Source of the DNA: Sarcomyxa edulis
Taxonomy: Eukaryota > Basidiomycota > Agaricomycetes > Agaricales > Mycenaceae
DNA: 64,000 nucleotides
Direction of reading: 5' to 3'
Assembly: GCA_009761415.1 (NCBI GenBank)
Contig: QUOL01000015.1
Span: forward strand, 1 to 64,000
The translations under genes were made by a program, and so were the position numbers. Below are positions 1 through 43,639 of this stretch, piece by piece; the stretch's first letter is position 1; each line of letters starts with the position of its first letter. The notes under the pieces were generated by a model. That model did no database searches. It saw only the letters and a program-made list of their open reading frames with translations, and had not been told where the DNA came from.

Positions 1-181
1 ACCTCATCATCTCATACCCACCTCACCACCATACGAACACATTATCCAAACACAAGTCACTGGGCATTAGGATTTCTCGCTACGTAAAATCCCCTCCGAG
101 AAAACGTCACCTTACCCCCTAGAGGCGAACTATAGTTAGGAGTCTAGCCCATCTACTCCTAGCGCCGCAGTCCTCATCACA
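1..181 (+). repeat. 3' end of the 5' LTR
   Basis: Identical base for base to 15768-15948. It ends in CATCACA, as does the 3' LTR, so position 181 is the LTR/internal boundary. The first about 1.56 kb of this LTR lies to the left of the window. Confidence 0.9.
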
Positions 182-183
182 AC

Positions 184-203
184 TGGAGCCCACCGCGAGG
201 GGA
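184..203 (+). other. Candidate primer binding site
   Basis: TGGAGCCCACCGCGAGGGG begins two bases after the LTR, where a Ty3/Gypsy primer binding site is expected, and starts with TGG (complement of tRNA 3' CCA). The reverse complement also resembles a tRNA T-loop followed by an acceptor end, but I cannot assign the tRNA. Confidence 0.55.
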
Positions 204-211
204 TTTAAAAG

Positions 212-2061
212 GTGTCTACTAGACGAGTTACCCGAGCCCAAACTCGTTTAGCTGAAGCAGAGCTTCAAGCCTTCTCTCAAACTTCCCGTATACCACATTT
301 ATCCGTCGAATATCCACAAAGCGACCTTTCCGAAGAAACGACTCCGCCCGAATCGTCACCGCTATCGGACGTACCATCAATAAATCTTGATTGGTTGCCA
401 TCCCAAACACCTCCTTCCAACATAGATACCTCAGACGAAGAATTGCTCCCACGTTCCGTTGAATCGGACACTATTTCAACAGAAGCCTCCCTTACGCCCT
501 CGGAAGACTCGGTTAGCCTAGCCCAGGGAAACGAACCGTCGAACAGTTTACCAGCCGAACCCTTATCTCACCTCCAATTGGAGTCTCGAATCCTATCCAT
601 CCCTTCCCGCCAAACTTCAACACAAGACCAAACGCAGACTCAGCCACCTCCTCCGTCTCAGATACCGTTACCATCGAATCGCATAAACCCTCGAATATCC
701 CAACCCCGAATACAGAAAAACCTTCCGACAATGACGTCAAGACCGCCGCCCACCCGGACCAGCAGGGATGCTCCAAAATTTGATGGTCTCGACGAATCTG
801 TTACAAGGTATTTCGAAGACATAGACCAAGTATGCACGGCGGCTGGGAAAGCGTCGGATAAAGAGAAAATCGACATGGCTAGGTACTACCTTGGGGCGGA
901 AGACGAATCGCTTTGGAAGGTGGTTACCGCAAAAGACTGGGACGCCTTCAAATCCGAAGTCCGGAAGCTTTATCCCGGATCAGACGAGAAAAAGAAATAT
1001 ACGCTCAATGATCTAGAGGTCTTGCTTGCAAAAGAAGCAGCAATACCGATTAACACCAAATCGGACTTTGGAAAATACCATCGTTCTTTCACCAGGATAT
1101 CGCATCATCTCAAAGACCAAAAAAGATCTCTGCTAAAGAAGAGAATCGCCTCTACGTAAAAGGACTCCACCCGCAGTTTCTGGTCCAGCTAATGGCCCGA
1201 CTAAAAATCAAGAAGCCCGACCAGGAACTCGACGAACCATATATGATCGATGACCTCTACAAGGAAGGCCAACATATCTAGGAGGACAGGTTCTTTACAG
1301 CGGAACACAGACGACTGGAATGGATCCGGTAGTTAAACAAGAAATAGACGAAATGTCGAGGGAAATAAAGGCGCTTAATAGGGAGTTGGCAGCAAGCATG
1401 AGTACGTTGGCAGCCACGGTTATCAAACATGGGGGCAAACCAGGCCATGTCATACAATAACCGTTACCAAGGCTATGTCCCGGCGCAGGGAAGGGCACCT
1501 AACCCATTCCTCGATCGATCCCCTGTCCGAAGAACTCAAAACGGTCCAGGAAACGGCTCGGTTTGTGCGTTCTGTTCGGACACGTCTCACTTCATTCGAG
1601 ATTGTCCGAAGGTCGCCGAATTTATCAGAGACGGGAAATGCATGCGAAACATGAACGGAAAAGTCGTACTTCCGAACGGAGCATGGGTTCCTTCAAATAT
1701 AGAAGGAATCAACTTGGCTGCCAGAATCAACAGGTACCATGAAATGTATCCGGGGTCGATTATAAATGGCGTCAACTTTGTACGCGATGCACCTCCCCAT
1801 GCCTCTACCATGTGGTTCGCATCGTCCGGAGAAACTTCTAGTTCGTACTACAAAGAGTCAAGGATCGAGGAGATCGAGGAAGAAGAAGAAGATATCGGAG
1901 AAGTCCTAGCAAACGAACAAGCAAGAAAAACCCGTAATGGCAAACCGCTGGAACCTACGGAGAAACCTGTACCTGCTATGCGAAGGAAAGGACCCCCGGA
2001 CGACCTCAGCCGCTCCCTGACGATCCGGTCAGCCAAGTTCCTCCCAAAAGGAAAACGGTAG
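212..2061 (+). pseudogene. gag region, frame-broken, with CCHC zinc knuckle
   Basis: This is the Gag structural region. The first frame opens at 212 with GTG where the conceptual protein would begin (S-T-R-R-x-T-R-A-Q); the first in-frame ATG is at 730. A zinc knuckle C-x2-C-x4-H-x4-C is encoded near 1564-1605 (C-A-F-C ... H ... C), which fixes the identity. Reading by sense rather than by frame, the Gag-like text jumps frame near 1115-1125 (run of A), 1276-1279, 1431 (run of G), about 1990 (run of C) and 2096-2110. None of these looks like an intron. Either the gene has decayed or the assembly has homopolymer indels. Gag of this copy should not be made as one protein unless the errors are technical. 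Confidence 0.75.
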
Positions 2062-2146
2062 AATTCGAAAAGGATGCGACCGAAGGAAGGAAGCAGTACA
2101 AACTGGTCCGCAGTATAAATTCTCAACGCCGATAGAAGATCCGGAG

Positions 2147-2870
2147 TTGGCAAAAAGGGTCTTGAACCGATCACTTGATACTCAGATATCCATCTCACAA
2201 AGAGAATTACTTTCGCTTAGCCTAGACGTCAGAAAACAGTACAAGGAACTGGTGTCTACTAAAAGGATTCCGACGGTTGGACGACTCGAGTCGATTAATC
2301 CGGACAACATCGACGAACCGGACTCCAGTTATATCCTTCGGTACGAAAATCCGAACGGACCGGACGAAGAAATTCTCCTCACGGGCTCATCCATTGAAAA
2401 AACTCAGAGTAATCTACCCGACTATCGAGGATGAAAAGGTCGAATGTGTGTTGGACGGAGGGTCGGAAATAATTGCCATGAACAAGGGACTTTGGCAGAA
2501 ACTCGGAATACACTTGAGACCGGACCATAAAATCACTATGGAATCGGCCAATAGCCAGCATGACACGACTACGGGGCTTATCGAGGACCTTAAATTTAAT
2601 ATCGGAGGACTCGAAATCTATCTGAAGGTCCATGTGGTGGAAAACGCTCCGTTCGAAATACTAATGGACGACCATTCTTTAAACTAACGGGATGCGTTAC
2701 CAAGGACTATACGACCGGAAACCAGGACTTGACCTTGACCTGCCCTAATACAGGAAAGGTTGTCACAGTTCCAACGTTCGTCAAACCAAAACGATCTTCA
2801 CCGACATCGGTGGGTTTTCGCCCGGTCGGAGGCCGTCAGTAGTCGAGACGAACCTTCGAAAAAGCATATC
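2147..2870 (+). pseudogene. Retroviral-type aspartic protease region, frame-broken
   Basis: Continues the gag frame set. A Gag-tail segment ending in I-S-Q-R-E-L-L-S-L-S-L-D-V-R-K-Q-Y-K-E-L is followed by the protease signature V-L-D-G-G-S-E near 2450 (active-site DGGS variant of D[ST]G). Frame changes are visible near 2393-2403 (a run of six A), 2664 (one G missing before R-P-F-F-K-L-T-G) and about 2810-2835, just before pol. As in gag, the shifts are single-base and mostly at homopolymers. The protease normally cuts the Gag-Pol polyprotein; here it is split between two frames. Confidence 0.7.
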
Positions 2871-2886
2871 GGTCAAGTATTTTACG

Positions 2887-5800
2887 GTGACCGACGATAC
2901 CCAGACTGCTGAAATTAACGATCATAATGTAACAACGAACTCGACGACACGATTTTCCCCTTCCAGACTGGGCCACCCAGCAAGTAACATATTTACCGGA
3001 ACACGCTACGAAAACATGGAAACGGAGGGAGCGGAGCAAACCCTCAACCAGCCCTCATGTGAAAATTGTATACTAAATGAAAATACGCAATGCCTGACGC
3101 TTTCGGACAACAAAATACCGCAGAAGAGAAAGAAGGGGAAGAAGTACAAACCGGTAGATAAAAGGACCCAACCGGTCGCTGCTACGCTACCAGAGGAATA
3201 CAGGATAGTACGAAAGTTCCCGTCGGACCCGCTGGAAACGCTGCCTGAGCTACCAACGCATCCACCGCGATTCGAACCAGGCACGAGATATACGATGGAA
3301 AGGATGATGGAACAGAATATCAACCCGGACGGCTTTTTATGGCCTGAGGAAGAAAAACTAGTCCATCATATAATCAAAACGCACGAAATGGCGTTCGCCT
3401 GGAACGAGATGGAAAAGGGCCACTTCAGATCGGACTACTTCGAACCGATTAAGCTCCCAGTTCTTGAACACACCCCTTGGAGCTATAAAAACATTCCGAT
3501 ACCACCGGGAATACGAGATAAGGTGGTACAGGCAGTCAAAGACAAGATAGCGGCAGGAGTATATGAACCATCGAATTCATCGTACAGGTCGAGGTGGTTC
3601 TGCGTGCCAAAGAAGGATGGGGTATCGTTAAGGATTGTGCATGATTTACAGCCTCTTAATGCTGTAACGATAAAGGACGCGGGCTGCCCGCCAATCGTCG
3701 AAGTCTATGCGGAGTCCTTCGGTGGGGCCACAATATATGGAATGTTCGATCTGTTTGTGGGATTCGACCACAGAATCCTCGCTATACCCTCAAGGGATCT
3801 TACGACGTTCCAAACGCCGATGGGCACTTTCAGGTTAACAAGGCTTCCACAAGGATACACTAATTCGGTCCAGATACAACAGGGAGATGTTTCGTTCATC
3901 CTGCAAGACGAGATTCCGAGCATCACACAACCGTTCGTGGACGATTGTCCGGTGAAGGGACCAGCAACGTACTACCAATCGGAAACTGGGGAATACGAAA
4001 CAATACCGGGCAACCCAGGGATAAGGAGATTCGTGTGGGAACACCTGGTGAACGTCAATCGAATCGTTCACCGAATAAGGCATGCAGGAGGAACGTTCAA
4101 TGCCAAGAAATCATTTCTGGCAGTACCATCGGTCGTCATTGTTGGCCACCGCTGTAACGTGCATGGCAGGATCCCGGATGAAACAAAGGTCCAGAAAATC
4201 AAAGATTGGCCGCCCTGTGAAGATTTAACAGATGTCCGAGCCTTCCTAGGAACGCTCGGACTAATGAGAATCTTCATAAAGAACTTTTCGCTACATGCGC
4301 GGCCGCTGGTCATGCTTACACGAAAGGATGTCGATTTCGTCTTCGGATTGCCACAGATAAAAGCCATGGAAACGCTCAAACATCTCTTAATAACCTCTCC
4401 GGCACTCCGAGCAATAGACTACCACTCGGAAAGGATGGTCTATCTAGTTGTCGATTCGTCTTGGAGGGCGATGGGCTGTGTCCTGCTGCAACTCGGACAA
4501 GACGGGATCGAATATCCATCCAGATTTGGCTCTATTACATGGAATGAACGCGAGCAAGGATACTCCCAGGCAAAAATCGAACTCTATGGCTTATTCAGGG
4601 CCCTCAGGGCTTATAGGTTATACATAGTCGGGGTTAAAAACTTGACGGTCCGAACAGATGCGAAATATATCAAAGGGATGCTAAATAATCCGGATATACA
4701 ACCTAATGCGGCTATCAATAGATGGATAGCAGCTATCCAGCTGTTCACGTTCAAACTAGAGCACATTCCAGGAACGGCGATGGGGCCGGCGGACGGTCTA
4801 TCTAGACGACGAAAGGCCCCGGAAGACTCGGAAGAAGAAGACGACGTCGAAGAATGGATCGATAGGGCATGCGGATTTTCGGTCGAAATGCTAAACTGGA
4901 ACGAAAACAGAGCTCGGTCAATATTGGATACGGTGCCGCCTCATCGATTAATGATAAATGACCGCGATTTTCCCGAAGCCATAGCAAAGGCATATTTCGC
5001 CTCGTTACCTGGCCGAAGAAGAGAAGTATCGGCAGTCCTTATTGGCGAAGTTGTCCCGAACGTGGTTATTCCTCAGTCGACTCTCGCCATCAAACAAGAC
5101 GAAGAACTCGTACGAATAACGGAGTACCTTGAAACGGCGAACAGGCCCGAAGGATTGTCCGATAAACAATTCAAAGCGTTTATGAAGAAAGCAGCTCACT
5201 TCTTTGTCCTAAATGGGCAATTATGGAGAAAGGACAGGCAGCTGAAACACAAAGTCGTACTCCCACCGGAAAAGAGGATTCAAATAATGGCCGAACTTCA
5301 TGATAAATTCGGGCATAAAGCAACGTGGACAACGAAGGTCAGGCTGATGGATAGGTTTTGGTGGCCAAGCATGAGCAGAGATGTGTCCTGGTTCGTCAGG
5401 ACGTGTCACCAATGTCAACTCAGAAACAGTTCGAAGATCCACATTCCTCCGACTGTGGCGGTTCCGTTTCCGCTATTTGGGAAAATCTACATGGACACAA
5501 TGCACCTTCCTACAGTCGATGGCTTTCATGTGATTGCTCATGGACGATGTTCGCTCAGCTCATATCCGGAGTGGAGAATGCTGAAAAATGAAAGCGCTGT
5601 TAATCTGGCCAGTTTCATCTTCGAAGATGTCCTATGCAGATGGGGAAGTATAATGGAAATCGTCACGGATAATGGGAAACCTTGGGTCAAAGCGGTCGAT
5701 CACCTCAAAAAGCAATATGGAATCAATCATATACGAATTTCGGGTTATAATTCGCAAGCGCAGGGGGTCATCGAGCGAAAGCACTACGATGTCCGAGAAT

Positions 5801-6561
5801 CGCTCATTAAGTCGTGCGATGGGAATCAATCAATTTGGCCGAAAGCAGCGCATGCCATATTTTGGGCCGAGCGGATTACAATTCAGAAATCCACGGGGTA
5901 TTCGCCATATTACATAGCGCACGGTGTCCAGGCGATACATCCGTTTGATTTGGAACAGTCAACATACATGCACCCGTTTATCGACGAAGAAATGGACTTC
6001 GGAGAACTCATAACGCGAAGAGCGATGAAGCTTCAAAGACGGGAAAAGGAGCTATCGAAAATACAGAGAGACAAGTACAAGGCTAGGCTCGAGTCGGCAG
6101 AGCAATTCCTGAAGAAGTATGAAGGACAGATTTACGATTTCAAGTTCGCCCCGGGGAGGCTCGTACTCATCAGAAACACAAGGATCGAGAAGGAACTGAA
6201 TAACAAGATGAAGCCCCGATATATAGGTCCGATGGTTGTTGTCCGGCAAACGAAATCGGGAAGTTATATACTCTCCGAAGTCAATGGTGCGATCGCGGAA
6301 CATCGATTTGCGGCGCACCGACTGGTACCATACTTCAGGAGGAACGAAATCACTATCCAAGTCACAACTTTAGTAGGTAAAACTACGAAACAGCTGAACG
6401 AGATGGCGGACGACGATACACCAGACGAATACAGCTTGGTGGAGCCAGGGGACGACTCGCTACCAGGAACATACAGGACGAGACTTTGGCAGTTCCCCAG
6501 GAAACCGGAACACGAAGGGACGACGTTAACGCCAGAACAAACGGGGCAAAAGAGGACGTAG
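2887..6561 (+). CDS. Pol polyprotein: reverse transcriptase, RNase H, integrase
   Basis: One uninterrupted frame of 1224 codons; the start shown is a GTG and the frame is open upstream, so Pol is probably translated as part of Gag-Pol. Reverse transcriptase: the first catalytic Asp lies in M-F-D-L near residue 288, and the FVDD box is at 350-353. RNase H spans about 515-655. Integrase: the HHCC zinc domain runs from H-D-K-F-G-H (about 805) to C-H-Q-C (about 840), and the catalytic triad has Asp in M-D-T-M-H (about 870), Asp in T-D-N-G (about 928) and Glu in I-E-R-K (about 963). A GPY/F-like module (R-Y-I-G-P-M) follows near 1115. I see no chromodomain. All key catalytic residues are present, unlike the broken gag-protease next to it. 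Confidence 0.93.
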   Translation: MTDDTQTAEINDHNVTTNSTTRFSPSRLGHPASNIFTGTRYENMETEGAEQTLNQPSCENCILNENTQCLTLSDNKIPQKRKKGKKYKPVDKRTQPVAATLPEEYRIVRKFPSDPLETLPELPTHPPRFEPGTRYTMERMMEQNINPDGFLWPEEEKLVHHIIKTHEMAFAWNEMEKGHFRSDYFEPIKLPVLEHTPWSYKNIPIPPGIRDKVVQAVKDKIAAGVYEPSNSSYRSRWFCVPKKDGVSLRIVHDLQPLNAVTIKDAGCPPIVEVYAESFGGATIYGMFDLFVGFDHRILAIPSRDLTTFQTPMGTFRLTRLPQGYTNSVQIQQGDVSFILQDEIPSITQPFVDDCPVKGPATYYQSETGEYETIPGNPGIRRFVWEHLVNVNRIVHRIRHAGGTFNAKKSFLAVPSVVIVGHRCNVHGRIPDETKVQKIKDWPPCEDLTDVRAFLGTLGLMRIFIKNFSLHARPLVMLTRKDVDFVFGLPQIKAMETLKHLLITSPALRAIDYHSERMVYLVVDSSWRAMGCVLLQLGQDGIEYPSRFGSITWNEREQGYSQAKIELYGLFRALRAYRLYIVGVKNLTVRTDAKYIKGMLNNPDIQPNAAINRWIAAIQLFTFKLEHIPGTAMGPADGLSRRRKAPEDSEEEDDVEEWIDRACGFSVEMLNWNENRARSILDTVPPHRLMINDRDFPEAIAKAYFASLPGRRREVSAVLIGEVVPNVVIPQSTLAIKQDEELVRITEYLETANRPEGLSDKQFKAFMKKAAHFFVLNGQLWRKDRQLKHKVVLPPEKRIQIMAELHDKFGHKATWTTKVRLMDRFWWPSMSRDVSWFVRTCHQCQLRNSSKIHIPPTVAVPFPLFGKIYMDTMHLPTVDGFHVIAHGRCSLSSYPEWRMLKNESAVNLASFIFEDVLCRWGSIMEIVTDNGKPWVKAVDHLKKQYGINHIRISGYNSQAQGVIERKHYDVRESLIKSCDGNQSIWPKAAHAIFWAERITIQKSTGYSPYYIAHGVQAIHPFDLEQSTYMHPFIDEEMDFGELITRRAMKLQRREKELSKIQRDKYKARLESAEQFLKKYEGQIYDFKFAPGRLVLIRNTRIEKELNNKMKPRYIGPMVVVRQTKSGSYILSEVNGAIAEHRFAAHRLVPYFRRNEITIQVTTLVGKTTKQLNEMADDDTPDEYSLVEPGDDSLPGTYRTRLWQFPRKPEHEGTTLTPEQTGQKRT

Positions 6562-6669
6562 GGCCGGCGAGGCAACGATAAAGACTTCTTAAAATTTCAC
6601 CTTATATTCATCTGGCTTATTTAACAAGAAATCGATTCATATTTCTACATTAAAGGTGGTGTCCACCGA

Positions 6670-6685
6670 GAAAAGGGGGGGGAGC
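6670..6685 (+). other. Internal polypurine tract directly after pol
   Basis: A purine-only stretch, GAGAAAAGGGGGGGGAG, lies 108 bp after the pol stop. In a conventional Ty3 element a tract like this would sit against the 3' LTR and prime plus-strand synthesis. Here it is 7.5 kb short of the LTR, so it may be a central or relic tract. Confidence 0.4.
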
Positions 6686-6753
6686 GTACAAAGTCGGAAA
6701 TCTGCGACGGGTTATCAAAAACAAACAAGAAAATACGAGAAGGTGGACTTGTG

Positions 6754-8240
6754 CTACAAGAACGCCATAGCAATCTCCTCCTCGTCCGCCTCATCGATAG
6801 CATCCTCGATCAAGACGCGATACGCCAAACCAATTTCCTTCATTACTTGATCAATAATCGGGGTCATATGATCAACGACAACGGGGCTTAGCACGCCAAA
6901 AGCGGACGAATCACTGGCACCGTCGAGAAGACGGGACCTAGAATTGCGAACGATGGCATCCATTTTCTCGCTGCGTGCGATACTGGAATCAGATCGTGGC
7001 CGAGGATGGTGCTCCGGAGACAGGCGAATGACTGGACGTCTGGGGTCGATACGCGAAAGGGAGCCAGAAGCCACGTTACGAAGGAGGGGAAGGGCTGACG
7101 AACTAGCAGTCGGGTTCGCCGATGTCTTAATCTCACCGGACGCCTCGCTGGAAACGACTTCGGGCCTTTTTAGGACCTTGATGCAGCCGGTAGCGCGAGC
7201 CATTAATTCGCCTACAAAGGGGAAAGAATTTCTATGGTTGCAGTTGTGTCCGTCACTACAGGGAGAAGGCTCACTGAGGTTATCCTCTCCACCTACGAGA
7301 TTGCATGCGGACTGCTTCCCTTCACAGAAGTCGCATGCTTGAGACCTGAAACCGGGGCAAGAAACGTCATTGCGAATACATTCGGAACATCGGTAGTCCT
7401 TGAAGAGGGTAAAAGATGGGGTCAATGACTTGAAAAACATAGGATGAGATACGGGGAAAGACTGACTCTGGCTCGGATAAAAAAGAGGCGGTTCTTTCTG
7501 GATGCTCTATCCTGTTTCGCTGAAGAAAGTGTTCGATAGGCTTCAACTGCTGGGAGGACGGTGATTTTGGGTACGGGGAAGCCGGTAACTTTTCTCGACC
7601 GACGGGTAGGTTGGCTGGTCCGTTCCCTCCCCGGAGAGTCACTTTGGGGCTCGACATCGCTAGCAGCTACGACCATTCGGACGCGGGCAACTTTAAATGA
7701 CCGGCTTACGGGCGCGAGAAGAGTACTTACAAGAATCGGCCAACTCGTCGCTCGAAAACTCAGGATCGAAATTAGCAACGGCCACGGTGCGCGGAAGATT
7801 ATACGAAATGGCCTCGAGAAGAAAGTCGGGAACGTAGGGAAAGTTATTAATGAACTTTATAACGGACGAATTCAATTCCGGAAAATTGTGGAAATAGGCT
7901 GGCGGAGCCCTAGGATAACCGATCGATAAAAGGGTGAACATCATGGACCTCAATTCTTTCGACGACTTCGTGATACGATCAGGCATTAATTGCCTGTAAA
8001 CACCGAAAAGCGAACCGGGAATTCGTCTAGTCGATATAAGGGCGCTTCGCTGAGCAGCGGAGAGGGTTCGCAAATCAGTATCACCAGAAAGGGCGGACAA
8101 GAGAGGCTGTGCGACGGTGCCATCCAGAATATCTGAACAAAAAACTTGTTATCAAACCAACTATGGACGATGAAGGAATATCGCGAACCCGTGATCGACC
8201 TATTAAACTTTCCTGAAAAAGCACCAGTGGTGGACGACAT
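6754..8240 (-). CDS. Antisense gene A6: protein with Zn(II)2Cys6-spaced cysteine array
   Basis: Reconstructed as four exons on the minus strand: 8240-8189, 8132-7731, 7666-7467 and 7398-6754, giving about 432 aa. The introns are 56, 64 and 68 nt with GT...AG ends and correct phase. The start of exon 4 encodes six cysteines at residues 222, 225, 232, 240, 243 and 250 (C-x2-C-x6-C-x7-C-x2-C-x6-C), the spacing of fungal Zn(II)2Cys6 binuclear clusters. The loops have fewer basic residues than classical DNA-binding members, so DNA binding is inference only. Upstream is a hydrophobic N-terminal half (I-N-N-F-P-Y-V-P-D-F-L-L); the C-terminus is acidic. It is not a clear member of the A1-A5 family. 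A TTATAA sequence at 8582-8587 lies 340 bp upstream, so a further 5' exon is possible. It is the last gene of the antisense cluster, ending 192 bp from the pol stop. Confidence 0.6.
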
Positions 8241-8925
8241 ATCTAAGAACCCTGATGGACGAAGAAGATACCGTCAATAAAAGAGGTTTCGAGAATAAAA
8301 GACCTCTCCTAAAAAGAATCTCAGCCCGGGTATCTCCAGCCACGTGGAAAAGAAGCCGAATCGATTGCCGAAACGATAAGGTCTTTGGTAAACAACCGCT
8401 CACAAAAAGAAGGATGGCGATCTATGAGGAGAAGAGGAAAAGGATGCTGCTACGCACTAATAGCAATAAGAACCTGGAAGTCAAAATACGAACGTTAAAT
8501 TGGAAGAACACGAAAGGAAGAAATACGAAGAACCGAAATACGAGACAAGCAAGAAAGAATAGTATGGTTGGCGCATGGGGCTTATAACCTCGTAACGGAA
8601 CGGATAGAGAGCGACGGCTCTCCTGTACACAGTGACGAAATACTGCGAAAAAGACCACGGACGACAAACGATCGAAAGAAATTGGAAGAAAACGACTATG
8701 CGGGGTTCGGAGACGGTAGATCTGGCTGGCCAGCGGATCTACTGACGCAGACCGAACCCAATTATGCGCTGATATGATAAAAGTATGCAACTCACGACGT
8801 TTTACAGATTTACGAGGAGACCGAGACGCTGGGTCTCACACTATGCAAAATTATGAACGAATTATGCGCCTGTTATCAGGCATTTATTTTACAAGAGACA
8901 AGGAATCGGAAACTCATCGGACGGT
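8241..8925. other. Gap between A5 and A6 without a confident gene
   Basis: About 690 bp that is AG-rich on the plus strand. It contains a palindromic TTATAA (8582-8587) and a 33-codon minus-strand frame after it that might be an A6 leader exon. Nothing firm. Confidence 0.35.
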
Positions 8926-9861
8926 CTACAGAATGGTAGTATCAGGTACCGCTCCAGCTCCTCGACGATTAGCCCTTGCCCCTCCGCGACCTCTCACACG
9001 CGTCGCACCGTTCCGAGGATCTACCTGTCCGAAAGCTCCAGGGCCGAAATGAACTTGGTGGAGGCCTCCGAGACGAGGATCGGGAACGTCTCCATGAAGA
9101 CGGACCTCTTCAAAGCCCTCTTTTACGGGAAACCTCGCGACGAAGGGGACAAGAGGATATTGAGGAGCAGGAAGAACAGGATTGGGAACGAAAGCCGCCC
9201 GCAATTTGAGCAGGTCGTTAACTTGCTGCTGCTTCATTTCGGGGAGCACGCCGTACACGTTGTACGCATCGGACGACTCAAATCCATCGAAATCCAGGGC
9301 AGTTCCGACGTATCCGACCTAGAAAAAGACGAAAAGAAATAAATCAACGAAGAATGAGAACCAAGAAATATGTAAAACGTGCCTGGGCAACCATCTCGCT
9401 CTTCACCGACGACAAAAGATACCCAACGTTCCTAACGTTGACCGCAACGTAGTCCCCCTCGAAACCAAAGTTCTTCAGAAAGAACTCGAGCATGGCGACG
9501 GTAGTGGTGGCTTGAGCGGGAATTGGAATGGTATCCCAAGAGCCTGATTTAATGGCCTCGGAGGCTCGGAGTTTCATAGCTTGATGCTGGACGGACGATG
9601 TTGAAAGAGGAACGATGAAGGAAAAACAAGCGAGCCGCTTACTACGTAATTGACGATCCGGGTGAGGAGGGTCCTGACCCAGAGCCTTTCCTCGAGAGGA
9701 ACGTCCGTCGGACACCTCCCATTAACGGAGAGATGAACGATGCCTAGGAGGCTACGAATTGACCGAGACCAGATGGTGGTCGGAGACCTCTCATTCTCGA
9801 GGTCGGGATCCTGGGGATTTTCGGGAAAGCGATTTGCAGACAAACGGAGAATAAAGGACAT
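8926..9861 (-). CDS. Antisense gene A5: family protein with extended Pro/Arg/Gly-rich tail
   Basis: Three exons: 9861-9643, 9586-9383 and 9318-8926, about 271 aa. The first intron is 56 nt, GT-AG. The second (9382-9319) begins with GC (CAG/GCACGT) and ends in TTTCTAG; phase is kept, but a GC-AG intron needs RNA evidence. Family features: S-I-R-S-L-L-G-I-V-H-L near residue 35 (block 1) and I-P-A-Q-A followed by a hydrophobic helix and F-G-F-E-G-D-Y in exon 2 (block 2, compare V-G-F-H-G-D-W in A2). Exon 3 adds a Q-Q-Q-V-N-D-L-L-K-L segment and a proline- then Arg/Gly-rich tail not seen in its paralogues. A TATA box (TATATAAA, 9913-9920) lies 52 bp before the ATG. Function unknown. Confidence 0.62.
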
Positions 9862-9912
9862 CGTTGATGGAACTTTACTGACTTAAGGATCAGAGCAAAC
9901 GATTCGGGGAGG

Positions 9913-9920
9913 TTTATATA
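9913..9920 (-). promoter_or_regulatory. TATA box of A5
   Basis: Minus strand CATATATAAACC, 52 bp before the A5 ATG and 43 bp after the A4 stop. Confidence 0.55.
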
Positions 9921-9962
9921 TGCAGACTACAATAAGTGGCATATGATTCTGGGAGCGTTACT

Positions 9963-10681
9963 TTACTCCGTCGTTTCCTCCTCCGACCCTGGCCAGTCCT
10001 CCGCGTCGCTATATCCTGCACCTTCGGACTCCCCCTCGACTACGACAACGCGCTTAGGTACGACCCTTTCGAGGAGATCGAGACGGATCGATCTGGTCAT
10101 CGCGCTTTCCAACGCGGCATCCCCGGGCTTCTCGTACTCCGGCCAATCGAAGGCATCTTCAGCCGACGCGTAAGCCGCCAGGGCGCGTATGCTAAGCTCG
10201 GTAAGAGCTCGGACGGCTTCGACCTCCCAATGAATGGGGCTTGCTGGCTGAATTCGGACAGCCCGACAAATCAAGCGCAAATGGCTAATCGTTCTATTCA
10301 TCTCGGACGGAATCATGTATAAACGCCTGTCCTGCTTGTTCAGCTCCTGCCACTGGCTGTGGAAATGGACCTGTTACCGATCAAGTGAAAACCCGTTAAA
10401 CAATGAGATCGCTAAGGGTCGAGCTTAGACCAACGTACCGCGAGGAGCAACACGATTTGCGCATTGCAGTAGTAGGGAACCCTCTCGCGACCAGTTAAAG
10501 CTACGAAGTAGCCATCGGGCCCGAGTTCACGGAATATAAAATCGGCAACGAGGCCGACAGCGGGGCGCAGGAGGCACCTGAGATAGTGAATCATTCCGTC
10601 ACGATCAAGGATATCGAACGTTGCTGCCTCTTGGGCAAGAGTGTTCAAAAGGACTTGGTGTAGGGGTTCCATAATTTTCAT
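9963..10681 (-). CDS. Antisense gene A4: small paralogous family protein
   Basis: Two exons, 10681-10439 and 10370-9963, separated by a 68-nt GT-AG intron (GTACGT ... GTAACAG) in phase 0; product 216 aa. Block 1 reads I-H-Y-L-R-C-L-L-R-P-A-V-G-L-V (compare F-L-R-F-R-L-R-P-M-M in A3). Block 2 is M-I-P-S-E-M-N-R followed by a hydrophobic helix. Block 3 is D-W-P-E-Y. The C-terminus is strongly acidic (E-G-E-S-E-G ... E-E-E-T-T-E). TATAAAAA (10722-10729) lies about 41 bp before the ATG, and the gene starts only 87 bp from the stop of A3. No domain recognised; the intact frame and clean intron argue for a real gene. Confidence 0.65.
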
Positions 10682-10721
10682 GGGCTCTGCGGTGACCTGT
10701 ACGGAGGAATTGATTCACCCT

Positions 10722-10729
10722 TTTTTATA
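10722..10729 (-). promoter_or_regulatory. TATA box of A4
   Basis: Minus strand AGTATAAAAAAGG, 41 bp before the A4 ATG and about 40 bp after the A3 stop, so A3 and A4 are nearly abutting but separately promoted. Confidence 0.55.
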
Positions 10730-10767
10730 CTAAAAATATCGCGCTATTCAGCTATCGGACACCCCTT

Positions 10768-11363
10768 CTACTTGCCCGTACCCTCCCCTGCCAACCGTAT
10801 CACGAACTCCGGAAATTCCACGGCAGCTGCCTCTCGGTGCATTACAGGGACGATAGACCAAAGGAACTCCTTCGTTAAATCCTTCCTCTTCACAAGTACA
10901 TCCTCATCGTACCCGAGCTCAACTCCGTGATGGATAAGGAATAGCTGCACCATGCTTGCGAGGCGCAACGCTTCTGACGGAACCACGGCCTCGTCTCCTC
11001 GGCCAATTGCCGTCACCCTATCCCTAAACCGTAGAATGGCATCCTAGAAGACGTAAGGTTAACACTCCGAAGCTCACCGAGTGAACCACGGACGCCTACC
11101 AAATGATCCAACACGATGCGGAACCAGCCTTTCGTCTCGCTCCATATGATTGGTTCAACGGTGTCTCTCGGGGAACTCGTTATAAGATAAGCCGCGTACC
11201 CCCGCTCGACGATCTCCATCATAGGGCGGAGGCGGAACCGAAGGAAATTTGTAAAGCCCTCGGTAGGAGCGAAATCCCCGGCAAGAACTTCAGGAGGATG
11301 AGCGTACGACAAAAACTCGTCTCGGAGAGCTTGAGTAAACGATGAACTAACGACATGCGACAT
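10768..11363 (-). CDS. Antisense gene A3: small paralogous family protein
   Basis: Two exons, 11363-11100 and 11043-10768, joined across a 56-nt intron (GTAGGC ... TTCTAG, phase 0), giving 179 aa. Sequence matches to A2 are direct: P-T-E-G-F-T-N-F-L-R-F-R-L-R-P-M-M here against P-H-E-G-F-D-G-F-F-R-K-R-L-R-M-M there; V-P-S-E-A-L-R against I-P-S-E-V-S-R; and E-F-P-E-F-V against E-Y-P-E-F-E near the C-terminus. TATAAA (11407-11412) lies 44 bp before the ATG. No catalytic motif, signal peptide or membrane span is evident; the protein looks like a small helical, possibly interacting, protein. Confidence 0.68.
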
Positions 11364-11406
11364 TTTGGCTGGAATAACGATGGCTATCCTGCGCCAGCTG
11401 GCGTTC

Positions 11407-11412
11407 TTTATA
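11407..11412 (-). promoter_or_regulatory. TATA box of A3
   Basis: Minus strand GGTATAAAGAAC, 44 bp before the A3 ATG. Confidence 0.55.
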
Positions 11413-11453
11413 CCTCATCGGACTTAGGACTGACGTCTCGGACCGATAAGAGG

Positions 11454-11797
11454 TGTCCGAACGGACTCCGTGCAGCCACTGTTAACCGTTGGATTTTCCG
11501 GACCGTGCCTTATCAGAAGCAGTAAAGACGCATGTTCTTCGGTATAGATGCTCACGGAACGATTGCGAATGCCACATGCAAAAGAACACGAGCTGGCCGC
11601 CACGTCGCGCCGCTACCCTGGGACCATCTTTTCGACTATTGTCGCAGGTCCTTGCCTCACCTGATACACTTCGCCGTGTCTCGTTCCTTCGCAAAGATTT
11701 CGCAAGATCGCGGTCACATCACCCGCACACGTATTAACCCGCACAGTCTCAACTGCGCCGTAAGAACAACGACGATCAGGACGCAAGCCACCTCGAT
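11454..11797. other. Unassigned stretch inside the antisense cluster
   Basis: Short minus-strand frames only (longest 70 codons), none resembling the A-family blocks. It may be 3' flank of the broken A2b copy or decayed coding sequence. Confidence 0.3.
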
Positions 11798-12166
11798 CTA
11801 AACGGCCATGACTTCATGAAGCCACTGGCGCTTGACGGCTGTCGGCTTTGAGCGCTGTAGAAATGCAACTGCATCATCTTGAAGAAGAGAACAGCATCTT
11901 GCGCCGGCCGAGTTATTGAACGGGACGAGAAGATCATCCTGACATCGCATATCGGCGAGGCTACGGAAGAACGAAATGATGACCAGGCCACTGAGCGATA
12001 TAGCGAAATTGTAAAGGAGAAAAGCTCTGAAAGCATTAATAACCTCTCTCCGTTCTCATCTCACTCGCCTCCCCTCTGAACTTTCCTCTCATCAAGAGCC
12101 GCTGACGGAGTTACGAACTGTCCGCGATTCAAATGTCTGCGCACAGCGGGTGGAATCATCGGACAT
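11798..12166 (-). pseudogene. Antisense A-family copy, probably broken (A2b)
   Basis: A TATA-like palindrome TTTATAAA (12175-12182) precedes a minus-strand ATG at 12166, but its frame soon stops. In another frame, 12043-11798 is open for 81 codons and begins with F-R-A-F-L-L-Y-N-F-A-I-S-L-S-G-L-V, resembling block 1 of the A-family (A4: I-H-Y-L-R-C-L-L-R-P-A-V-G-L-V). An intron from about 12118 to 12044 would join the two in phase, but its splice sites are weak. I take it as a degenerate or poorly resolved family member between A2 and A3. Confidence 0.3.
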
Positions 12167-12425
12167 CGGTACCCTTTATAAAGGAGGTTGGGAGGCTGCC
12201 CGAAATCGTTGTTGCCCTCCGGACTGACAGTGCATTCCATAAACTACAAGATCTCTGAACACGGCACGCGAAAGGAGTGTTTACCCATTAAAGTACCAAC
12301 GACGACAAAAACCCCCTCGGTCACATCCAGGAAAGCTTCCCCGCTACGCGTGCGTTCTGAAATGCGAATTTCCGACTATTAGTATCCCTCTGAGGGGCCC
12401 AAAGAACGAGACCGACGGCGCCTGC

Positions 12426-13013
12426 TTACCAGAACACCAGGTCCTCAAATTCGGGATACTCCTTTGCCCCGCCAGTCAATGAAGCGTTAACGTCGGCCTC
12501 ATCTTTTAGTGACTGAAGCATTTCCCTCCTCTGACCGACGCTGCTGAGGGCCCAGTCCCCGTGAAATCCGACCTTGTCATAAACGATAAGACTGAACTCC
12601 ATCATACGGGATACCTCTGAAGGAATTTTAAATTCGGCGGCGTTGGCATCGGTCCTGGCCCGCTGACGGTATGCAACGATGAGTTCCTGCGCAGAAGGAT
12701 TTTTTAGTATCTCTGCGTTGCCCCGCTGAAAAACGGTGGAAGCCCGTACAACGTTCTCGACGAAAAACCGCATAAGCCGCCTCGACAGCGTATACTGCCC
12801 GATAACGCTATCGGTGTCATCGGGAAATGCTGTCACCCTATGGGGAAGCGTCGCCTGGATGACACCGAACATCATACGAAGGCGTTTGCGGAAGAATCCA
12901 TCGAAGCCCTCGTGCGGATAGAAGACGGGTCGAATGAAGGACGGGACGTTCAGCGTCATGAAGTAGTCGCAGAGTCTCTCGCGAGCCATTTGCATACTGC
13001 GGGCAGGCATTTC
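12426..13013 (-). CDS. Antisense gene A2: small paralogous family protein
   Basis: Single-exon frame of 195 aa from the ATG at 13013; an upstream in-frame TTG is not needed. Block 1: P-H-E-G-F-D-G-F-F-R-K-R-L-R-M-M. Block 2: I-P-S-E-V-S-R-M-M-E-F then D-K-V-G-F-H-G-D-W. Block 3: E-Y-P-E-F-E-D-L near the end. An ATATAAAC TATA element (13039-13046) lies 27 bp before the ATG, an exceptionally short leader. The last codons overlap a potential 5' splice site (TG/GTAAGC), but every acceptor I tried ends the protein at about the same place. No recognised domain; homology to A1, A3, A4 and A5 is the main evidence that it is real. Confidence 0.68.
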   Translation of the reverse strand, partial: EMPARSMQMARERLCDYFMTLNVPSFIRPVFYPHEGFDGFFRKRLRMMFGVIQATLPHRVTAFPDDTDSVIGQYTLSRRLMRFFVENVVRASTVFQRGNAEILKNPSAQELIVAYRQRARTDANAAEFKIPSEVSRMMEFSLIVYDKVGFHGDWALSSVGQRREMLQSLKDEADVNASLTGGAKEYPEFEDLVFW

Positions 13014-13038
13014 GATTTTCAACACGAAAAGACTCGTC

Positions 13039-13046
13039 GTTTATAT
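13039..13046 (-). promoter_or_regulatory. TATA box of A2
   Basis: Minus strand ATATAAAC, 27 bp before the A2 ATG and 60 bp after the A1 stop. Confidence 0.5.
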
Positions 13047-13105
13047 GTACATGATGACTGCATGCCCTCGATCACCTCTCCGAACCCTTCCCTCTTCTTG
13101 CCGCC

Positions 13106-14044
13106 TCATGCCCCCGACAAATTGTTTAGTCCCTGTTCGATAATCGCCGCCCCGCCAATCAAACCGTTCCTCTCCTCTTCGGATAACGTCTCCAAAAGCA
13201 GGCGAAATGCCCCGTGTGTTGCCAAGCTTGCGAGTGGCTGGACTGTACCTCTCCGATCAGCTCGTTGCCGCACCGCTAAAGTGTCAGAATTCTTACCGGA
13301 CAAGGCCCTTTCTACCTCGGCCACCTCCATTTCTTCGTCCCCGTCGTCCGTTGCAATACTTATGACGGATATGCCTTCGTCTTCGTTGTTAGCCGGATTT
13401 TCTTCCCCCTCGAGGCTGTTGCCCCTGTCCGTACTAATCGTACCATCTCGATGTACCCTGGGACCGCTGTATGGATGCTTCTTCAACACGGCATGCGCAT
13501 GGAACCGACCACGCGGGTCCGCCTCGATGTAATCGAAAGCGACGCCGAATGTCGATCGGCGGGCGTATTCTTCTATGAAGTACAAGATAACGTCGATCTT
13601 ATGTGCCTCGTCCTCGTCCTGATTCCCGGAAAACCCTACGACGTGGACGCACCGCTGCACCTGGTAAACGGCGGTCACTGCTTCCTTGGGAAACGGCTCC
13701 GTGGTATCGTCCATGCACCTCCCCTTCAGTACCCATCTAAGTCTGAGCATGAATACCTTGACCTTCGCAATTAGCACGGACCCCCTGAAAGACGCACACG
13801 CACTCACCATGTGCTGGCACAAGATTTTAACGTGCTTTCTCAACGTGTATACACCGTGACTCGAGAACTCCGGAAGGAGAACGTCCGCCACTGCATCCTG
13901 AAAAATGCAGCTAACAACTAGGTGAACCATGGGACGGATATTGTTACGCAGGTATCCGAGGAAAGTTGCCATCGTAATATCGCCATCTATCCCGTCTAGA
14001 TCGAGGCAGCGCGTAAAGAAGAGTTCTTTTGCTATGGGATCCAT
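13106..14044 (-). CDS. Antisense gene A1: largest paralogous family protein
   Basis: Single-exon frame of 312 aa and the first gene of the antisense cluster, starting 160 bp inside the 3' LTR boundary. Block 1: F-L-G-Y-L-R-N-N-I-R-P-M-V-H-L-V near residues 28-44. Block 2: P-F-P-K-E-A-V then a hydrophobic helix and H-V-V-G-F-S-G-N-Q. About 130 extra residues follow, including an acidic segment (E-G-E-E-N-P ... D-D-G-D-E-E-M-E) and L-S-E-E-E-R-N-G-L near the end. A TATAAA element (plus strand TTTATA, 14091-14096) lies 47 bp before the ATG. Coding density and the shared blocks argue against chance; function unknown. Confidence 0.7.
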   Translation of the reverse strand: MDPIAKELFFTRCLDLDGIDGDITMATFLGYLRNNIRPMVHLVVSCIFQDAVADVLLPEFSSHGVYTLRKHVKILCQHMVSACASFRGSVLIAKVKVFMLRLRWVLKGRCMDDTTEPFPKEAVTAVYQVQRCVHVVGFSGNQDEDEAHKIDVILYFIEEYARRSTFGVAFDYIEADPRGRFHAHAVLKKHPYSGPRVHRDGTISTDRGNSLEGEENPANNEDEGISVISIATDDGDEEMEVAEVERALSGKNSDTLAVRQRADRRGTVQPLASLATHGAFRLLLETLSEEERNGLIGGAAIIEQGLNNLSGA

Positions 14045-14090
14045 TTGGCTTGTTGCTTTCAGGAAAGCTCTGGCTGTCTTAACCTTGGAA

Positions 14091-14096
14091 TTTATA
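14091..14096 (-). promoter_or_regulatory. TATA box of A1
   Basis: Minus strand CTATAAATT, 47 bp before the A1 ATG. It lies between the A1 start and the polypurine tract, outside the LTR, so A1 has a promoter of its own. Confidence 0.55.
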
Positions 14097-14186
14097 GGTC
14101 CTTGGCCGGTCGTCCTTGCCCTGTTTTGGTCACGGGCACGTTGTTGTGTTTGCCCTCCGGATGATCGACCGGGGACGGTCGATATT

Positions 14187-14203
14187 TAAAAGTTAGGAGG
14201 AAG
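14187..14203 (+). other. Polypurine tract next to the 3' LTR
   Basis: AAAAGTTAGGAGGAAG ends directly at the TG that starts the 3' LTR, the position required for plus-strand priming. Confidence 0.6.
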
Positions 14204-15193
14204 TGTGAGGATGCCAGCATCCCCAGCCAAGGAATCGACAACTATACAACAACCTACTCTTATGCGACTCCCCAGACATAGCTAACTACAGAGACACTGG
14301 TGGTATTACCACAAACGACTTACTTTTCGAATGACCGGACACTGAAAGACACCAAGTACCCGCTACTTGACGGTTCCTCCCCGAAAGCGGCCTCTTCATC
14401 CACTCACGAAACGCTAACCCGCCTTCGGTCACGTCTCAGAACGTTTTGGAATACCTGAAATCACACACGAACAACTTCTCCGAAGGAAATCTACCGCCAG
14501 AACCCAATTCCCTATCGTCGTTTCACCTGACCGAAGGCCCAATGTACTCGATCACCTCTCCGCAGCCCCCTAGATCCTTCGGACAGATCCCAAATCGTTT
14601 CAGCAGGCTCCCTTTCACCTCTAGAAGACCTCATCGAGAGATACTTCACCGATAAAACATTGCCACCAGTCGACATACCGCCAACGTGATGCTTACTGCC
14701 CTGAGCTGTTCTTCCTATCAAATCGGACATATTCCCTTTACATTGTGATCTCAATTCACACCTTTCCATGCATCTGGACGCCTCGTTAAGACCTCCGTCC
14801 ACCCTGACCAAGTGGTGCTACGGAATATTCTTCCCTCTGTGTTTATCACATGACACAGCACTTGTAAGCGAGGTATCGCCCGCTAACAAAGACACTACAG
14901 GTCTCCGCCTAGCAACCCACATCAAATTCACTCTTCTCGGACAACTTTGGCCGTCGCATCTTGGAAAAATCTATCGGAAGCTCCCCATCATCCTGCTCAC
15001 TCGGACATGTTTCATCCCTTCACAAATTCACCTTGCAACGCTTTCAGAAAACACCTCAGGCCCTAACCTTTCACACTGAGCGAGGTTCGGACACATCAAA
15101 ACCAATACCGGATCTGTTTCATCATTGGAGATCTCGGGGACCTTGGGATGGCACTCGGGGTGAAGAATTAGGCAAGGACAGGGAAGGAATTCA

Positions 15194-15200
15194 TATATAA
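15194..15200 (+). promoter_or_regulatory. LTR TATA box (sense promoter)
   Basis: CATATATAAAGTAGG in the LTR, the likely core promoter for the genomic retroelement RNA; transcription would start roughly 25-35 bp downstream. Confidence 0.5.
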
Positions 15201-15412
15201 AGTAGGATAGGACATGGAGAACGGTAGATAGAACCAGTGTGGACGAGAACCAGAGGAACATACCCGAATCGACCAACTACCCAGTCACTCTCTATAGGAA
15301 TTCTATCTCTTTCTCATACTTCTGAAACCGAGACAAGGAACGATTACAGGAGTCGGTCAAAACAAGAGAAAAAGGACTTGATTCAGTCGGCAGTACCACT
15401 CCCGGAACAAAG

Positions 15413-15725
15413 GAAGCTCTCCGAAATCAGTCCAGAGCTGTCCGAAACCCTCGAAGCTCTCCGAAATCAGTTCAGAGCTGTCCGAAACCTTCGATAGCTC
15501 TCCGAAGACGTTTTATAACTATACAAAGCATCGGTCAGCTCACCAAAAGCTGTCCGAGGCCCTCGTAGGTTCTCCAAGATCGAACTTATAGCTGTCCGAA
15601 GCCCCCGATAGCTCTCCGAAGACGTATTATAAGCCGTCCGAAGCATCGATCAGCTCTCCGAAAGCTGTCCGAGGCCTTCGTAGGTTTTCCAAGATCGAAC
15701 CTATAGCTGTCCGAAGCCTCTAAAC
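15413..15725 (+). repeat. Tandem AGCT(C/G)TCCGA repeats in the LTR
   Basis: A unit with GAAGCTCTCCGAAATCAG recurs with 40-bp period at 15413 and 15453, continuing as GATAGCTCTCCGA at 15493. From 15493 a second level of repetition has a period of about 114 bp (15493 and 15607). The core AGCTCTCCGA or AGCTGTCCGA occurs about ten times. It lies downstream of the LTR TATA box, so in the R/U5 part. Confidence 0.75.
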
Positions 15726-15948
15726 GGCCTACCGAGAACGATCCTACAAGTCCGAAGCTTACCTTACACCTCATCATCTCATACCCACCTCACCACCATA
15801 CGAACACATTATCCAAACACAAGTCACTGGGCATTAGGATTTCTCGCTACGTAAAATCCCCTCCGAGAAAACGTCACCTTACCCCCTAGAGGCGAACTAT
15901 AGTTAGGAGTCTAGCCCATCTACTCCTAGCGCCGCAGTCCTCATCACA

Positions 15949-18940: not shown

Positions 18941-19560
18941 GATGGGTAGAGGTTCGTTGTCGGACTCGGAGTCTGAATCGGGTACAGAATGGGGATATAT
19001 GCGGTCTGGTGACGGCGTTAAAGACGGTAACGAGGAAGAAGCGTTCGAGAGAGGATGAAACGAAGGGCTGGAGCGTGGATATCGTGCGGAAAGACGGGGC
19101 GGGGTGACGACAGCCAGCGCAGGTGGCTGTATGCTATCTGGATCGAGTTCGGGGATTCGTTACGGGATCGGAGGTAATACCCAAGGCACTACGTCGGTGT
19201 GAGGGATGATAAACAAGGAGAACGAAAGAATCGTAGAACAAAAATTGAACAAGGCGGGTACGGAAAGACAGGAAATACTTCCGCGGAAGCAAAAACGACC
19301 CGCCGGGATCAAATCTCGATGAAAGTTCTTTGAAAAACTTCGAGGGGTTTGGAATACTATGTCCGATTTTAAAAAAAAGTGTGAGCCCACGGAGGTGGTC
19401 TACACTGAGGATGAGAAACAAGTAAAATGAAACAGAGTATCGATTAAAAGGTAAAAGGTAAGAGTACAGGCTGAGCGTTCTATGTAAGGCTGTAGTCTAA
19501 CACGAGCAAACATTGGTAAGCTACGGTTACACATTCAGGGATTTTGTCGAATCTCGAATC
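18941..19560 (-). mobile_element. Probable 5' leader/LTR side of the second retroelement, unresolved
   Basis: Lies upstream of the gag-pol ATG on the minus strand, where leader and 5' LTR are expected. Candidate LTR edges exist (minus-strand TGTAACCG near 19533, CTCACA near 19198), but no second copy is in the window, so boundaries are not set. No gene seen. Confidence 0.35.
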
Positions 19561-43625: not shown

Positions 43626-43639
43626 TTCCAACGATGAGA

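What the first reader, a model, noticed from the sequence alone, without database searches (positions are those of the whole stretch)
6754..14044. A giant Ty3/Gypsy element carries a cluster of six or seven antisense genes between pol and the 3' LTR
Seen: between pol (ends 6561) and the 3' polypurine tract (14187) nearly all coding signal is on the minus strand, with at least six genes that read well after splicing. Known: Ty3/Gypsy elements usually have nothing, or an env-like sense gene, here; antisense ORFs are known in some plant LTR elements. Inference: the retroelement mobilises a separately expressed gene set. I do not recall a described fungal element of this kind with so many antisense genes.
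Basis: partly seen in the sequence, partly recalled or inferred. Interest (0 to 1): 0.95.

Follow-up and report, generated by a model that had tools for sequence, protein, structure and literature searches.

The report
Retrotransposon with an antisense gene array
A large, recently active fungal jumping element carries a conserved set of six protein genes written on its opposite strand, and shorter relatives seem to carry only those backward genes, which suggests that the genes serve the element itself.

Summary
Window 1-15948 is a Ty3/Gypsy element whose 5' LTR is cut by the contig start. Its pol-to-3'LTR interval holds six minus-strand genes, four of them with introns: ZnC, a cysteine-cluster protein with Zn2Cys6-like spacing, beside pol, then five small proteins, G5 to G1. 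Pooled pN/pS is 0.06-0.16; eight control ORFs gave 0.33 or more. The block belongs to the element: it was read in place in 11 other copies, and G5 occurs in 31 family-1 loci. Five of seven LTR-bounded units have 4-bp target duplications; four have LTR pairs without mismatches. Two extensions go beyond the finding. A second family (20.6 kb, pol 84% identical) has the same genes in the same order, although the proteins are only 27-49% identical. And 15 loci carry the array with a diverged ZnC and no pol match nearby; the one read in full contains only antisense genes. ZnC is a swapped module: synonymous divergence reaches about 1 on a nearly constant background. Single antisense genes are known in plant elements and in Botrytis Boty. 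An intron-bearing array, or elements made of it alone, did not turn up in my paper searches. Its function (regulating the element) is inferred.

The parts
1..181 (+). end of the 5' LTR (the rest is cut off by the contig start)
   Evidence: 100% identical to 15768-15948; complete 5' LTR seen in other copies
184..200 (+). primer-binding-site-like TGGAGCCCACCGCGAGG
   Evidence: follows the LTR end; also present after the 5' LTR of the short element C34:37990-49688; the tRNA was not identified
212..2690 (+). gag and protease region, several frames, with a CCHC-like knuckle near 1570 (by eye)
   Evidence: ORF list and sequence; weak zf-CCHC_2 match below cut-off
2887..6561 (+). pol: reverse transcriptase (FVDD), RNase H, integrase
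   Evidence: Pfam RT_RNaseH and Integrase_H2C2; PDB matches to Ty3 Gag-Pol and PFV integrase
6754..8240 (-). ZnC: four exons 8240-8225, 8132-7731, 7666-7467, 7398-6754; 420 aa; Cys cluster C-x2-C-x6-C-x7-C-x2-C-x6-C
   Evidence: gene model and splice conservation; pN/pS 0.16; no Pfam family above cut-off
8926..9861 (-). G5: three exons 9861-9643, 9586-9383, 9318-8926; 271 aa
   Evidence: frame intact in 10 of 11 other copies; 31 family-1 and 9 family-2 loci
9963..10681 (-). G4: two exons 10681-10439, 10370-9963; 216 aa
   Evidence: intact in 10 of 11 other copies; pN/pS 0.14
10768..11363 (-). G3: two exons 11363-11100, 11043-10768; 179 aa
   Evidence: intact in 11 of 11 other copies; related to G2, BLASTP E 8e-7, hhalign 98%
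12426..13010 (-). G2: one exon, 194 aa
   Evidence: pN/pS 0.06; frame broken in 9 of 11 other copies, 8 of them by a length not divisible by 3; cause not established
13106..14044 (-). G1: one exon, 312 aa
   Evidence: pN/pS 0.10; 25 full-length family-1 matches, window included, 23 without internal stop
14164..14183 (.). palindrome ATCGACCG-GGGA-CGGTCGAT upstream of G1 and beside the polypurine tract
   Evidence: conserved in the second family with one change in the spacer
14188..14203 (+). polypurine-tract-like run
   Evidence: conserved between families at the LTR boundary
14204..15948 (+). 3' LTR, 1745 bp, TGTGAGG...CATCACA; tandem repeats with TCCGA units at about 15400-15720

Best explanation
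This is a recently mobile giant Ty3/Gypsy lineage in a fungus. Its pol-to-3'LTR interval is a lasting second gene set on the antisense strand. SHOWN: six genes in this family; a colinear set in a second family; purifying selection; presence in copies with pol and in at least one copy, and probably 15, without it. INFERRED: the genes are transcribed from their own antisense promoters. Because they run against the genomic RNA, their introns are not spliceable in that RNA and survive reverse transcription, which fits their presence in copies with mismatch-free LTR pairs. INFERRED and less certain: ZnC is a DNA-binding regulator of the element's LTR and array promoters, and G1-G5 are accessory proteins that serve the carrying copy (regulation, escape from silencing, or particle or nuclear steps). 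Elements that lost gag and pol keep the array and move in trans. That points to a benefit to the copy that carries it.
For: G5 in 31 family-1 loci: 16 with an F1-type ZnC (one of them only a 21-residue match at a contig end) and 15 with a diverged ZnC and no pol match nearby. The short element C34:37990-49688 was read in full: LTR, PBS, antisense ZnC and G5-G1, LTR; 11,699 bp. Same order in family 2 with 27-49% identical proteins. Selection on the antisense genes against controls. ZnC exons of five other short elements against C34b: dN 0.025-0.134, dS 0.21-1.12. LTR pairs with 0 mismatches in 4 of 7, though one of the four (C25a) is probably the window's own locus. 4-bp duplications in 5 of 7. 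Zn2Cys6-like spacing in F1 and short-element ZnC. LTR repeats built on CCG-containing units in both families.
Against: No RNA or protein data. ZnC has no Zn-cluster Pfam match even at E 10, so DNA binding rests on cysteine spacing alone. CCG triplets as such are not enriched in either LTR, TCCGA is also somewhat enriched in gag-pol (39 against a shuffle mean of 23.6, maximum 38), and tandem duplication alone would produce the repeated units. The family-2 cysteine-cluster gene was not found by a search with window ZnC, and its second gap is x8. G1-G5 have no recognisable fold: models with pLDDT 44 and 58; the second gave no structural match. Of 10 comparable copies ZnC is intact in 5; G2 is intact in 2 of 11. 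That 14 of the 15 loci lack pol rests on a search that scored 45 of 173 candidates.
Confidence: 0.6

Rival explanations
1. The antisense array is the selected unit: a hitchhiker that uses the LTR, PBS and PPT signals and the gag-pol of relatives. The short pol-less elements are its pure form and the gag-pol copies are one of its carriers.
For: 15 loci without a pol match nearby against 16 with an F1-type ZnC. The short elements have their own ZnC lineages, 36-40% identical to F1 ZnC over the N-terminal part, with dS up to about 1.1 and low dN in the six compared. The short element read in full has an LTR pair without mismatches.
Against: LTR and G5-G1 of that short element are 99% identical to those of the window, so they were recently joined to the same lineage. 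Family 2 has the array next to its own pol.
Confidence: 0.22
2. Captured host genes that benefit the fungus and are kept by host selection.
For: Spliced genes with introns look like chromosomal genes.
Against: No copy outside the elements was recognised at E up to 1 for G1, G5 or ZnC; G2, G3 and G4 were not searched alone. One homologue of G1 and two weak ones of the family profile in 5.8 billion proteins, none for the ORF with ZnC exon 4; that search needs shared 5-residue words and its sensitivity is limited. Selection is seen across several copies.
Confidence: 0.06
3. The antisense RNA matters, not the proteins: it pairs with genomic RNA and limits copy number, or feeds RNA interference.
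For: The genome has Piwi-domain loci. dsRNA effects of antisense transcripts are discussed for plant elements (PMC7264820, passages).
Against: Codon-level constraint, conserved splice sites and protein-level conservation between families are not explained by RNA alone.
Confidence: 0.09
4. A secondary insertion or host segment trapped in one copy.
For: None found.
Against: Block in 23 places and at the same position in the copies read; the target duplications found flank the whole unit.
Confidence: 0.01

Closest known systems
Boty (BcGypsy1) of Botrytis cinerea with antisense gene brtn (Zhao et al. 2011, not read; cited in PMC7264820 and PMC8365987, passages read)
   Same: LTR element of a fungus with an antisense gene between pol and 3' LTR
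   Different: One antisense gene named there; here six, four of them spliced and at least two paralogous, in two families, plus elements without pol. Sequence homology of brtn was not tested.
Plant Retand, Grande and RIRE2 elements with antisense ORFs (PMC11963269: abstract, section 11 part 1 and passages; PMC7264820: passages)
   Same: Long pol-3'LTR region with antisense coding regions; tandem repeats in about half; defective families keep the antisense ORF
   Different: Plants; 104 antisense ORFs, TRP28 domain in 61 of the 63 listed clusters; in Table 1 no cluster lacks all of GAG, AP, RH and INT, but that survey started from RT and so could not find elements without RT. Here no TRP28 match, introns, and a pol-less form.
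Large retrotransposon derivatives (named in PMC6431247, passages)
   Same: LTR-bounded, most of the original coding sequence replaced, moved in trans
   Different: Their interior is described there as not necessarily coding; here it encodes constrained antisense genes shared with autonomous relatives
HTLV HBZ-type antisense retroviral genes (named in PMC11963269, passages)
   Same: Antisense gene in a retroelement with a regulatory role in the named case
   Different: No homology tested; one gene against an array
Fungal Zn2Cys6 transcription factors (spacing rule recalled)
   Same: Cysteine spacing of ZnC in F1 and the short element fits
   Different: No Pfam Zn-cluster match at E up to 10

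Membership tests
Ty3/Gypsy LTR retrotransposon | LTRs with TG...CA ends | tested here: met
   14204-15948; LTR pairs in other copies
Ty3/Gypsy LTR retrotransposon | order RT - RNase H - integrase in pol | tested here: met
   RNase H at 490-618, integrase zinc-binding domain at 793-848 of pol; RT and integrase matches in PDB. Pfam RVT_1 itself was not listed
Ty3/Gypsy LTR retrotransposon | target-site duplication | tested here: met
   4 bp in 5 of 7 complete units; C25a and C11b do not match; the one family-2 copy looked at does not match
Ty3/Gypsy LTR retrotransposon | tRNA primer-binding site | tested here: inconclusive
   TGG-starting 17-mer after the LTR; tRNA not identified
[quoted passage not shown]
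Retand lineage | TRP28 (PF04195) domain | tested here: not met
   no such Pfam match in ZnC or G1-G5
Boty-like elements | homology of the antisense protein to brtn | not tested
   brtn sequence not fetched
LARD (short elements) | LTRs without gag-pol | tested here: met
   one element read in full; 14 more loci without a pol match nearby
LARD (short elements) | non-coding interior (as recalled) | tested here: not met
   constrained antisense genes
Zn2Cys6 transcription factor (ZnC) | C-x2-C-x6-C-x5to12-C-x2-C-x6to8-C (recalled) | tested here: met
   window and short-element ZnC; the family-2 gene has x8 in the second gap
Zn2Cys6 transcription factor (ZnC) | Pfam Zn_clus match | tested here: not met
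Zn2Cys6 transcription factor (ZnC) | sequence-specific DNA binding | not testable with these tools
   needs experiment

The most novel reading that the evidence does not exclude
The two strands of this retroelement hold two gene sets with separate lives. The sense strand is a copying machine, and the antisense strand is a spliced, modular regulon that can shed the machine and live as its own mobile unit. ZnC works as an identity or immunity module. Old ZnC types are kept and shuffled between otherwise nearly identical elements, as repressor types are in phages, so that a copy with a new ZnC escapes control by resident ones.
Probability: 0.22. Interest if true: 0.93.

Novelty: new variant of a known kind. 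Interest (0 to 1): 0.82.

Why it matters
The function of antisense ORFs in LTR elements is an open question (stated in PMC7264820, passages). This system bears on it in three ways. The array persists without gag and pol, it is under measured selection in several copies of one genome, and one gene has many natural variants on a near-constant background. It also gives a simple reason why spliced cargo of a retroelement must lie antisense: only then do its introns survive the RNA stage. If ZnC is a type-specific regulator, this would be an immunity-like system between copies of a retrotransposon.

Tried and rejected
Rejected: (1) a seventh gene from the frame-2 ORF 7657-7430: dN/dS 0.75-2.85 where defined, with a stop in each copy compared; the frame conserved there is ZnC exon 3. 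(2) An intron after G2: by eye on the sequence the spliced form would stop at once, so G2 was kept as one exon. (3) Minus ORF 11776-12036 as a gene: pN/pS 0.75. (4) Secondary insertion: see the copies.

Led nowhere: Pfam and NCBIfam for the array proteins (G3-G5 were not run against NCBIfam); PDB profile search; AlphaFold models of G1 and G2 (pLDDT 44 and 58) and fold searches of the G2 model (best E 1.5 and 0.33); viral contigs; Rfam. A more distant pol copy (51% identical, C16:166610) showed no convincing array match (best E 0.10) in the 8.5 kb after it, where several ORFs look by eye like host genes. That is one copy only. A search for papers on zinc-cluster or non-autonomous antisense elements gave nothing relevant in its listing.

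Paralogy of G1-G5 is graded. G2-G3 is firm (hhalign 98%). Seven further pairs (G1 with G2, G3, G4, G5; G2-G4; G2-G5; G3-G5) have low probabilities (5-42%) but scored above all 126 shuffled controls, the best of which was 14.8. G3-G4 and G4-G5 did not, nor did any pair with the extra family-2 gene or with ZnC.
Full report
WHAT WAS CLAIMED.

THE ELEMENT. Window 1-181 is the end of a 5' LTR, 100% identical to 15768-15948. The contig starts there, so the 5' LTR is cut. The 3' LTR is 14204-15948, 1745 bp, TGTGAGG...CATCACA. Pol (2887-6561) has RNase H and integrase domains and matches solved Ty3 and spumavirus enzymes. The window is C7:1-64000 of an unnamed 35.6 Mb genome. That the host is an agaricomycete-like basidiomycete is my impression from intron sizes and neighbouring ORFs; it was not tested.

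THE ANTISENSE GENES. Codon-position counts of substitutions between copies pointed to minus-strand exons. The final models (stop of G5 corrected) are ZnC (4 exons, 420 aa), G5 (3 exons), G4 (2), G3 (2), G2 (1) and G1 (1). Pooled over two diverged copies (C7b and C3a), pN/pS is 0.06-0.16 for the six genes (partial output). Eight control ORFs gave 0.33 or more, seven of them 0.66 or more. Single pairs with few changes scatter more, up to 0.59 for G1 against C40a on 3 changes. Of 11 other copies, G3 is intact in 11, G4 in 10, G5 in 10 and G1 in 8; one of the three others is cut by a contig end. ZnC is intact in 5, not intact in 5, and of another type in 1; three of the five not intact are type-B copies, where the coordinates carried over from the window may be off. 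G2 is intact in 2. Eight of the nine G2 breaks are lengths not divisible by 3; I suspect base-calling in a run of A, but I did not test it. These 11 include C25a, which is probably the window's own locus (below).

IT IS PART OF THE ELEMENT. The block matches 23 places in the genome, window included. Units with both LTRs that were read are 17.4-17.5 kb (C25, C40, C3, C7, C11) or shorter (two on C34), and hold the block at the same position. Five of seven units examined have a 4-bp target duplication; C25a and C11b do not. C25a has 0 substitutions from the window over 3001-15948 and shares 1.7 kb of right flank with 3 gaps and no mismatch, so it is probably the same locus assembled twice, or the other haplotype. 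LTR pairs have 0 mismatches in 4 of 7 units (C25a, C40a, C34a, C34b), and 1, 2 and 6 in the others. All 13 pol matches that cover at least 989 of 1024 residues at 98% or more have ZnC, or part of it, directly downstream in antisense.

SECOND FAMILY. Pol copies at 83-84% identity mark another family. The C12 copy spans 984684-1005290 (20.6 kb) with identical 2089-bp LTRs; I read it in pieces, not all of it. Downstream of its pol, on the minus strand, lie a cysteine-cluster gene, then homologues of G5 (46-49% identical), G4 (27%), G3 (34%), an extra gene, G2 (32-40%) and G1 (37%), in the same order. Pol differs by dN 0.11 while the parts of the array genes that I compared differ by dN 0.38-0.88; synonymous sites are saturated or nearly so. 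The cysteine-cluster gene of this family was not found by a search with window ZnC; its kinship rests on position, strand and cysteine pattern. The flanks of this copy do not form a target duplication. By G5 the family has 9 loci.

POL-LESS ELEMENTS. G5 is found in 31 family-1 loci. By their ZnC match, 16 have an F1-type ZnC (one of them by 21 residues at a contig end) and 15 have a ZnC only 36-40% identical over its N-terminal part. None of the 15 has a pol match nearby, which scored 45 of 173 candidates. One of them, C34:37990-49688, was read in full: LTR, primer-site-like sequence, antisense ZnC, G5-G1 at 99% DNA identity, LTR; 11,699 bp; 4-bp duplication; LTR pair without mismatches. In my paper searches (open-licence PMC library only) I saw no LTR element described as made of antisense genes alone. 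I read the Retand table: none of its 63 clusters lacks all of GAG, AP, RH and INT, but that survey was seeded with RT and could not have found elements without it.

ZnC IS A SWAPPED MODULE. Along the element, type-B copies (C7b, C11a, C1) differ from the window by 12-34% over about 6500-8500, against 0-8.4% on either side. Against C34b, the ZnC exons of five other pol-less copies have dS 0.21-1.12 and dN 0.025-0.134, and different exons give different nearest relatives, so ZnC itself is mosaic. Where listed, the array blocks and LTRs of these copies are 98-99% identical to the window; they were not compared with each other directly. The ZnC proteins are constrained, not fast-evolving. The simplest account is template switching during reverse transcription that joins old ZnC lineages to a recently spread G5-LTR half. 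Selection for diversity is possible but not shown.

WHAT THE PROTEINS ARE. ZnC of window and short element has the spacing C-x2-C-x6-C-x7-C-x2-C-x6-C, which fits the Zn2Cys6 rule as I recall it, but it has no Pfam match above cut-off, and the ORF with its exon 4 found no homologue among 5.8 billion proteins. G1 has one homologue (78%, a 1.2 kb contig). The family profile adds two weak ones that by eye resemble G5 and the extra gene of family 2. These searches need shared 5-residue words, so remote relatives can be missed. G2 and G3 are paralogues; G1, G4 and G5 are probably remote ones. Models suggest all-helical proteins but are too weak to use.

LTR REPEATS. LTR1 has 21 TCCGA against a shuffle mean of 5.5 (maximum 14 of 100 shuffles). 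LTR2 has 9 CCGATCGG against 0.11 (maximum 2). CCG as such is not enriched in either (56 against 48; 80 against 77), and TCCGA is also above its shuffles in gag-pol (39 against 23.6, maximum 38). A palindrome with CCG-N4-CGG lies between G1 and the polypurine tract in both families. This fits, but does not show, a ZnC target.

MECHANISM. Introns run against the genomic RNA, so they cannot be spliced from it; copies with mismatch-free LTR pairs still have them, as expected. The proteins would be made from separate antisense transcripts. The persistence of a constrained array in pol-less copies argues that it helps the copy that carries it. I think it most likely that the array regulates or protects the element's own expression. 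The host has Piwi-domain genes, so antisense transcription may carry a cost that the proteins must outweigh; this is speculation.

PRIOR ART. [quoted passage not shown] PMC8365987, passages; PMC11963269, abstract, section 11 part 1 and passages). In a review of giant elements, of which I read passages only, the word antisense does not occur in the main text (PMC6431247). A paper on extra ORFs of rotifer LTR elements was seen in passages (PMC5408684). I therefore file this as a new variant of a known kind.

Noticed in passing
window 15947-19159, minus strand: A 1071-aa open frame that begins at the element's right edge and by eye reads like another retroelement polyprotein; the element may sit inside another retroelement.
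   Followed up: no
C25:95784-114999 and window 1-17665: 0 substitutions over window 3001-15948 and 1.7 kb of shared right flank (3 gaps): probably one locus present in two contigs, or two haplotypes.
   Followed up: partly
L032:203-2291: The second family's LTR holds tandem repeats built on CCGATCGG-type units.
   Followed up: partly
window about 12700-12705 (run of T on the + strand) and other copies: G2 is broken in 9 of 11 other copies, 8 by a length not divisible by 3; base-calling error at this run or real decay. The link to the run is my guess.
   Followed up: partly
window 39626-40474 and 42447-43649, minus strand: Two neighbouring ORFs share a similar stretch (YMMPIE.II) and look kinase-like by eye; perhaps a tandem duplicate.
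   Followed up: no
L031 7371-8053: The second family has an extra array gene between the G3 and G2 homologues; Logan protein P0003 resembles it.
   Followed up: partly
L030 about 450-1110 and L031 about 350-1020: Repeats between pol and the cysteine-cluster gene in the second family, a feature also reported for plant Retand elements.
   Followed up: no
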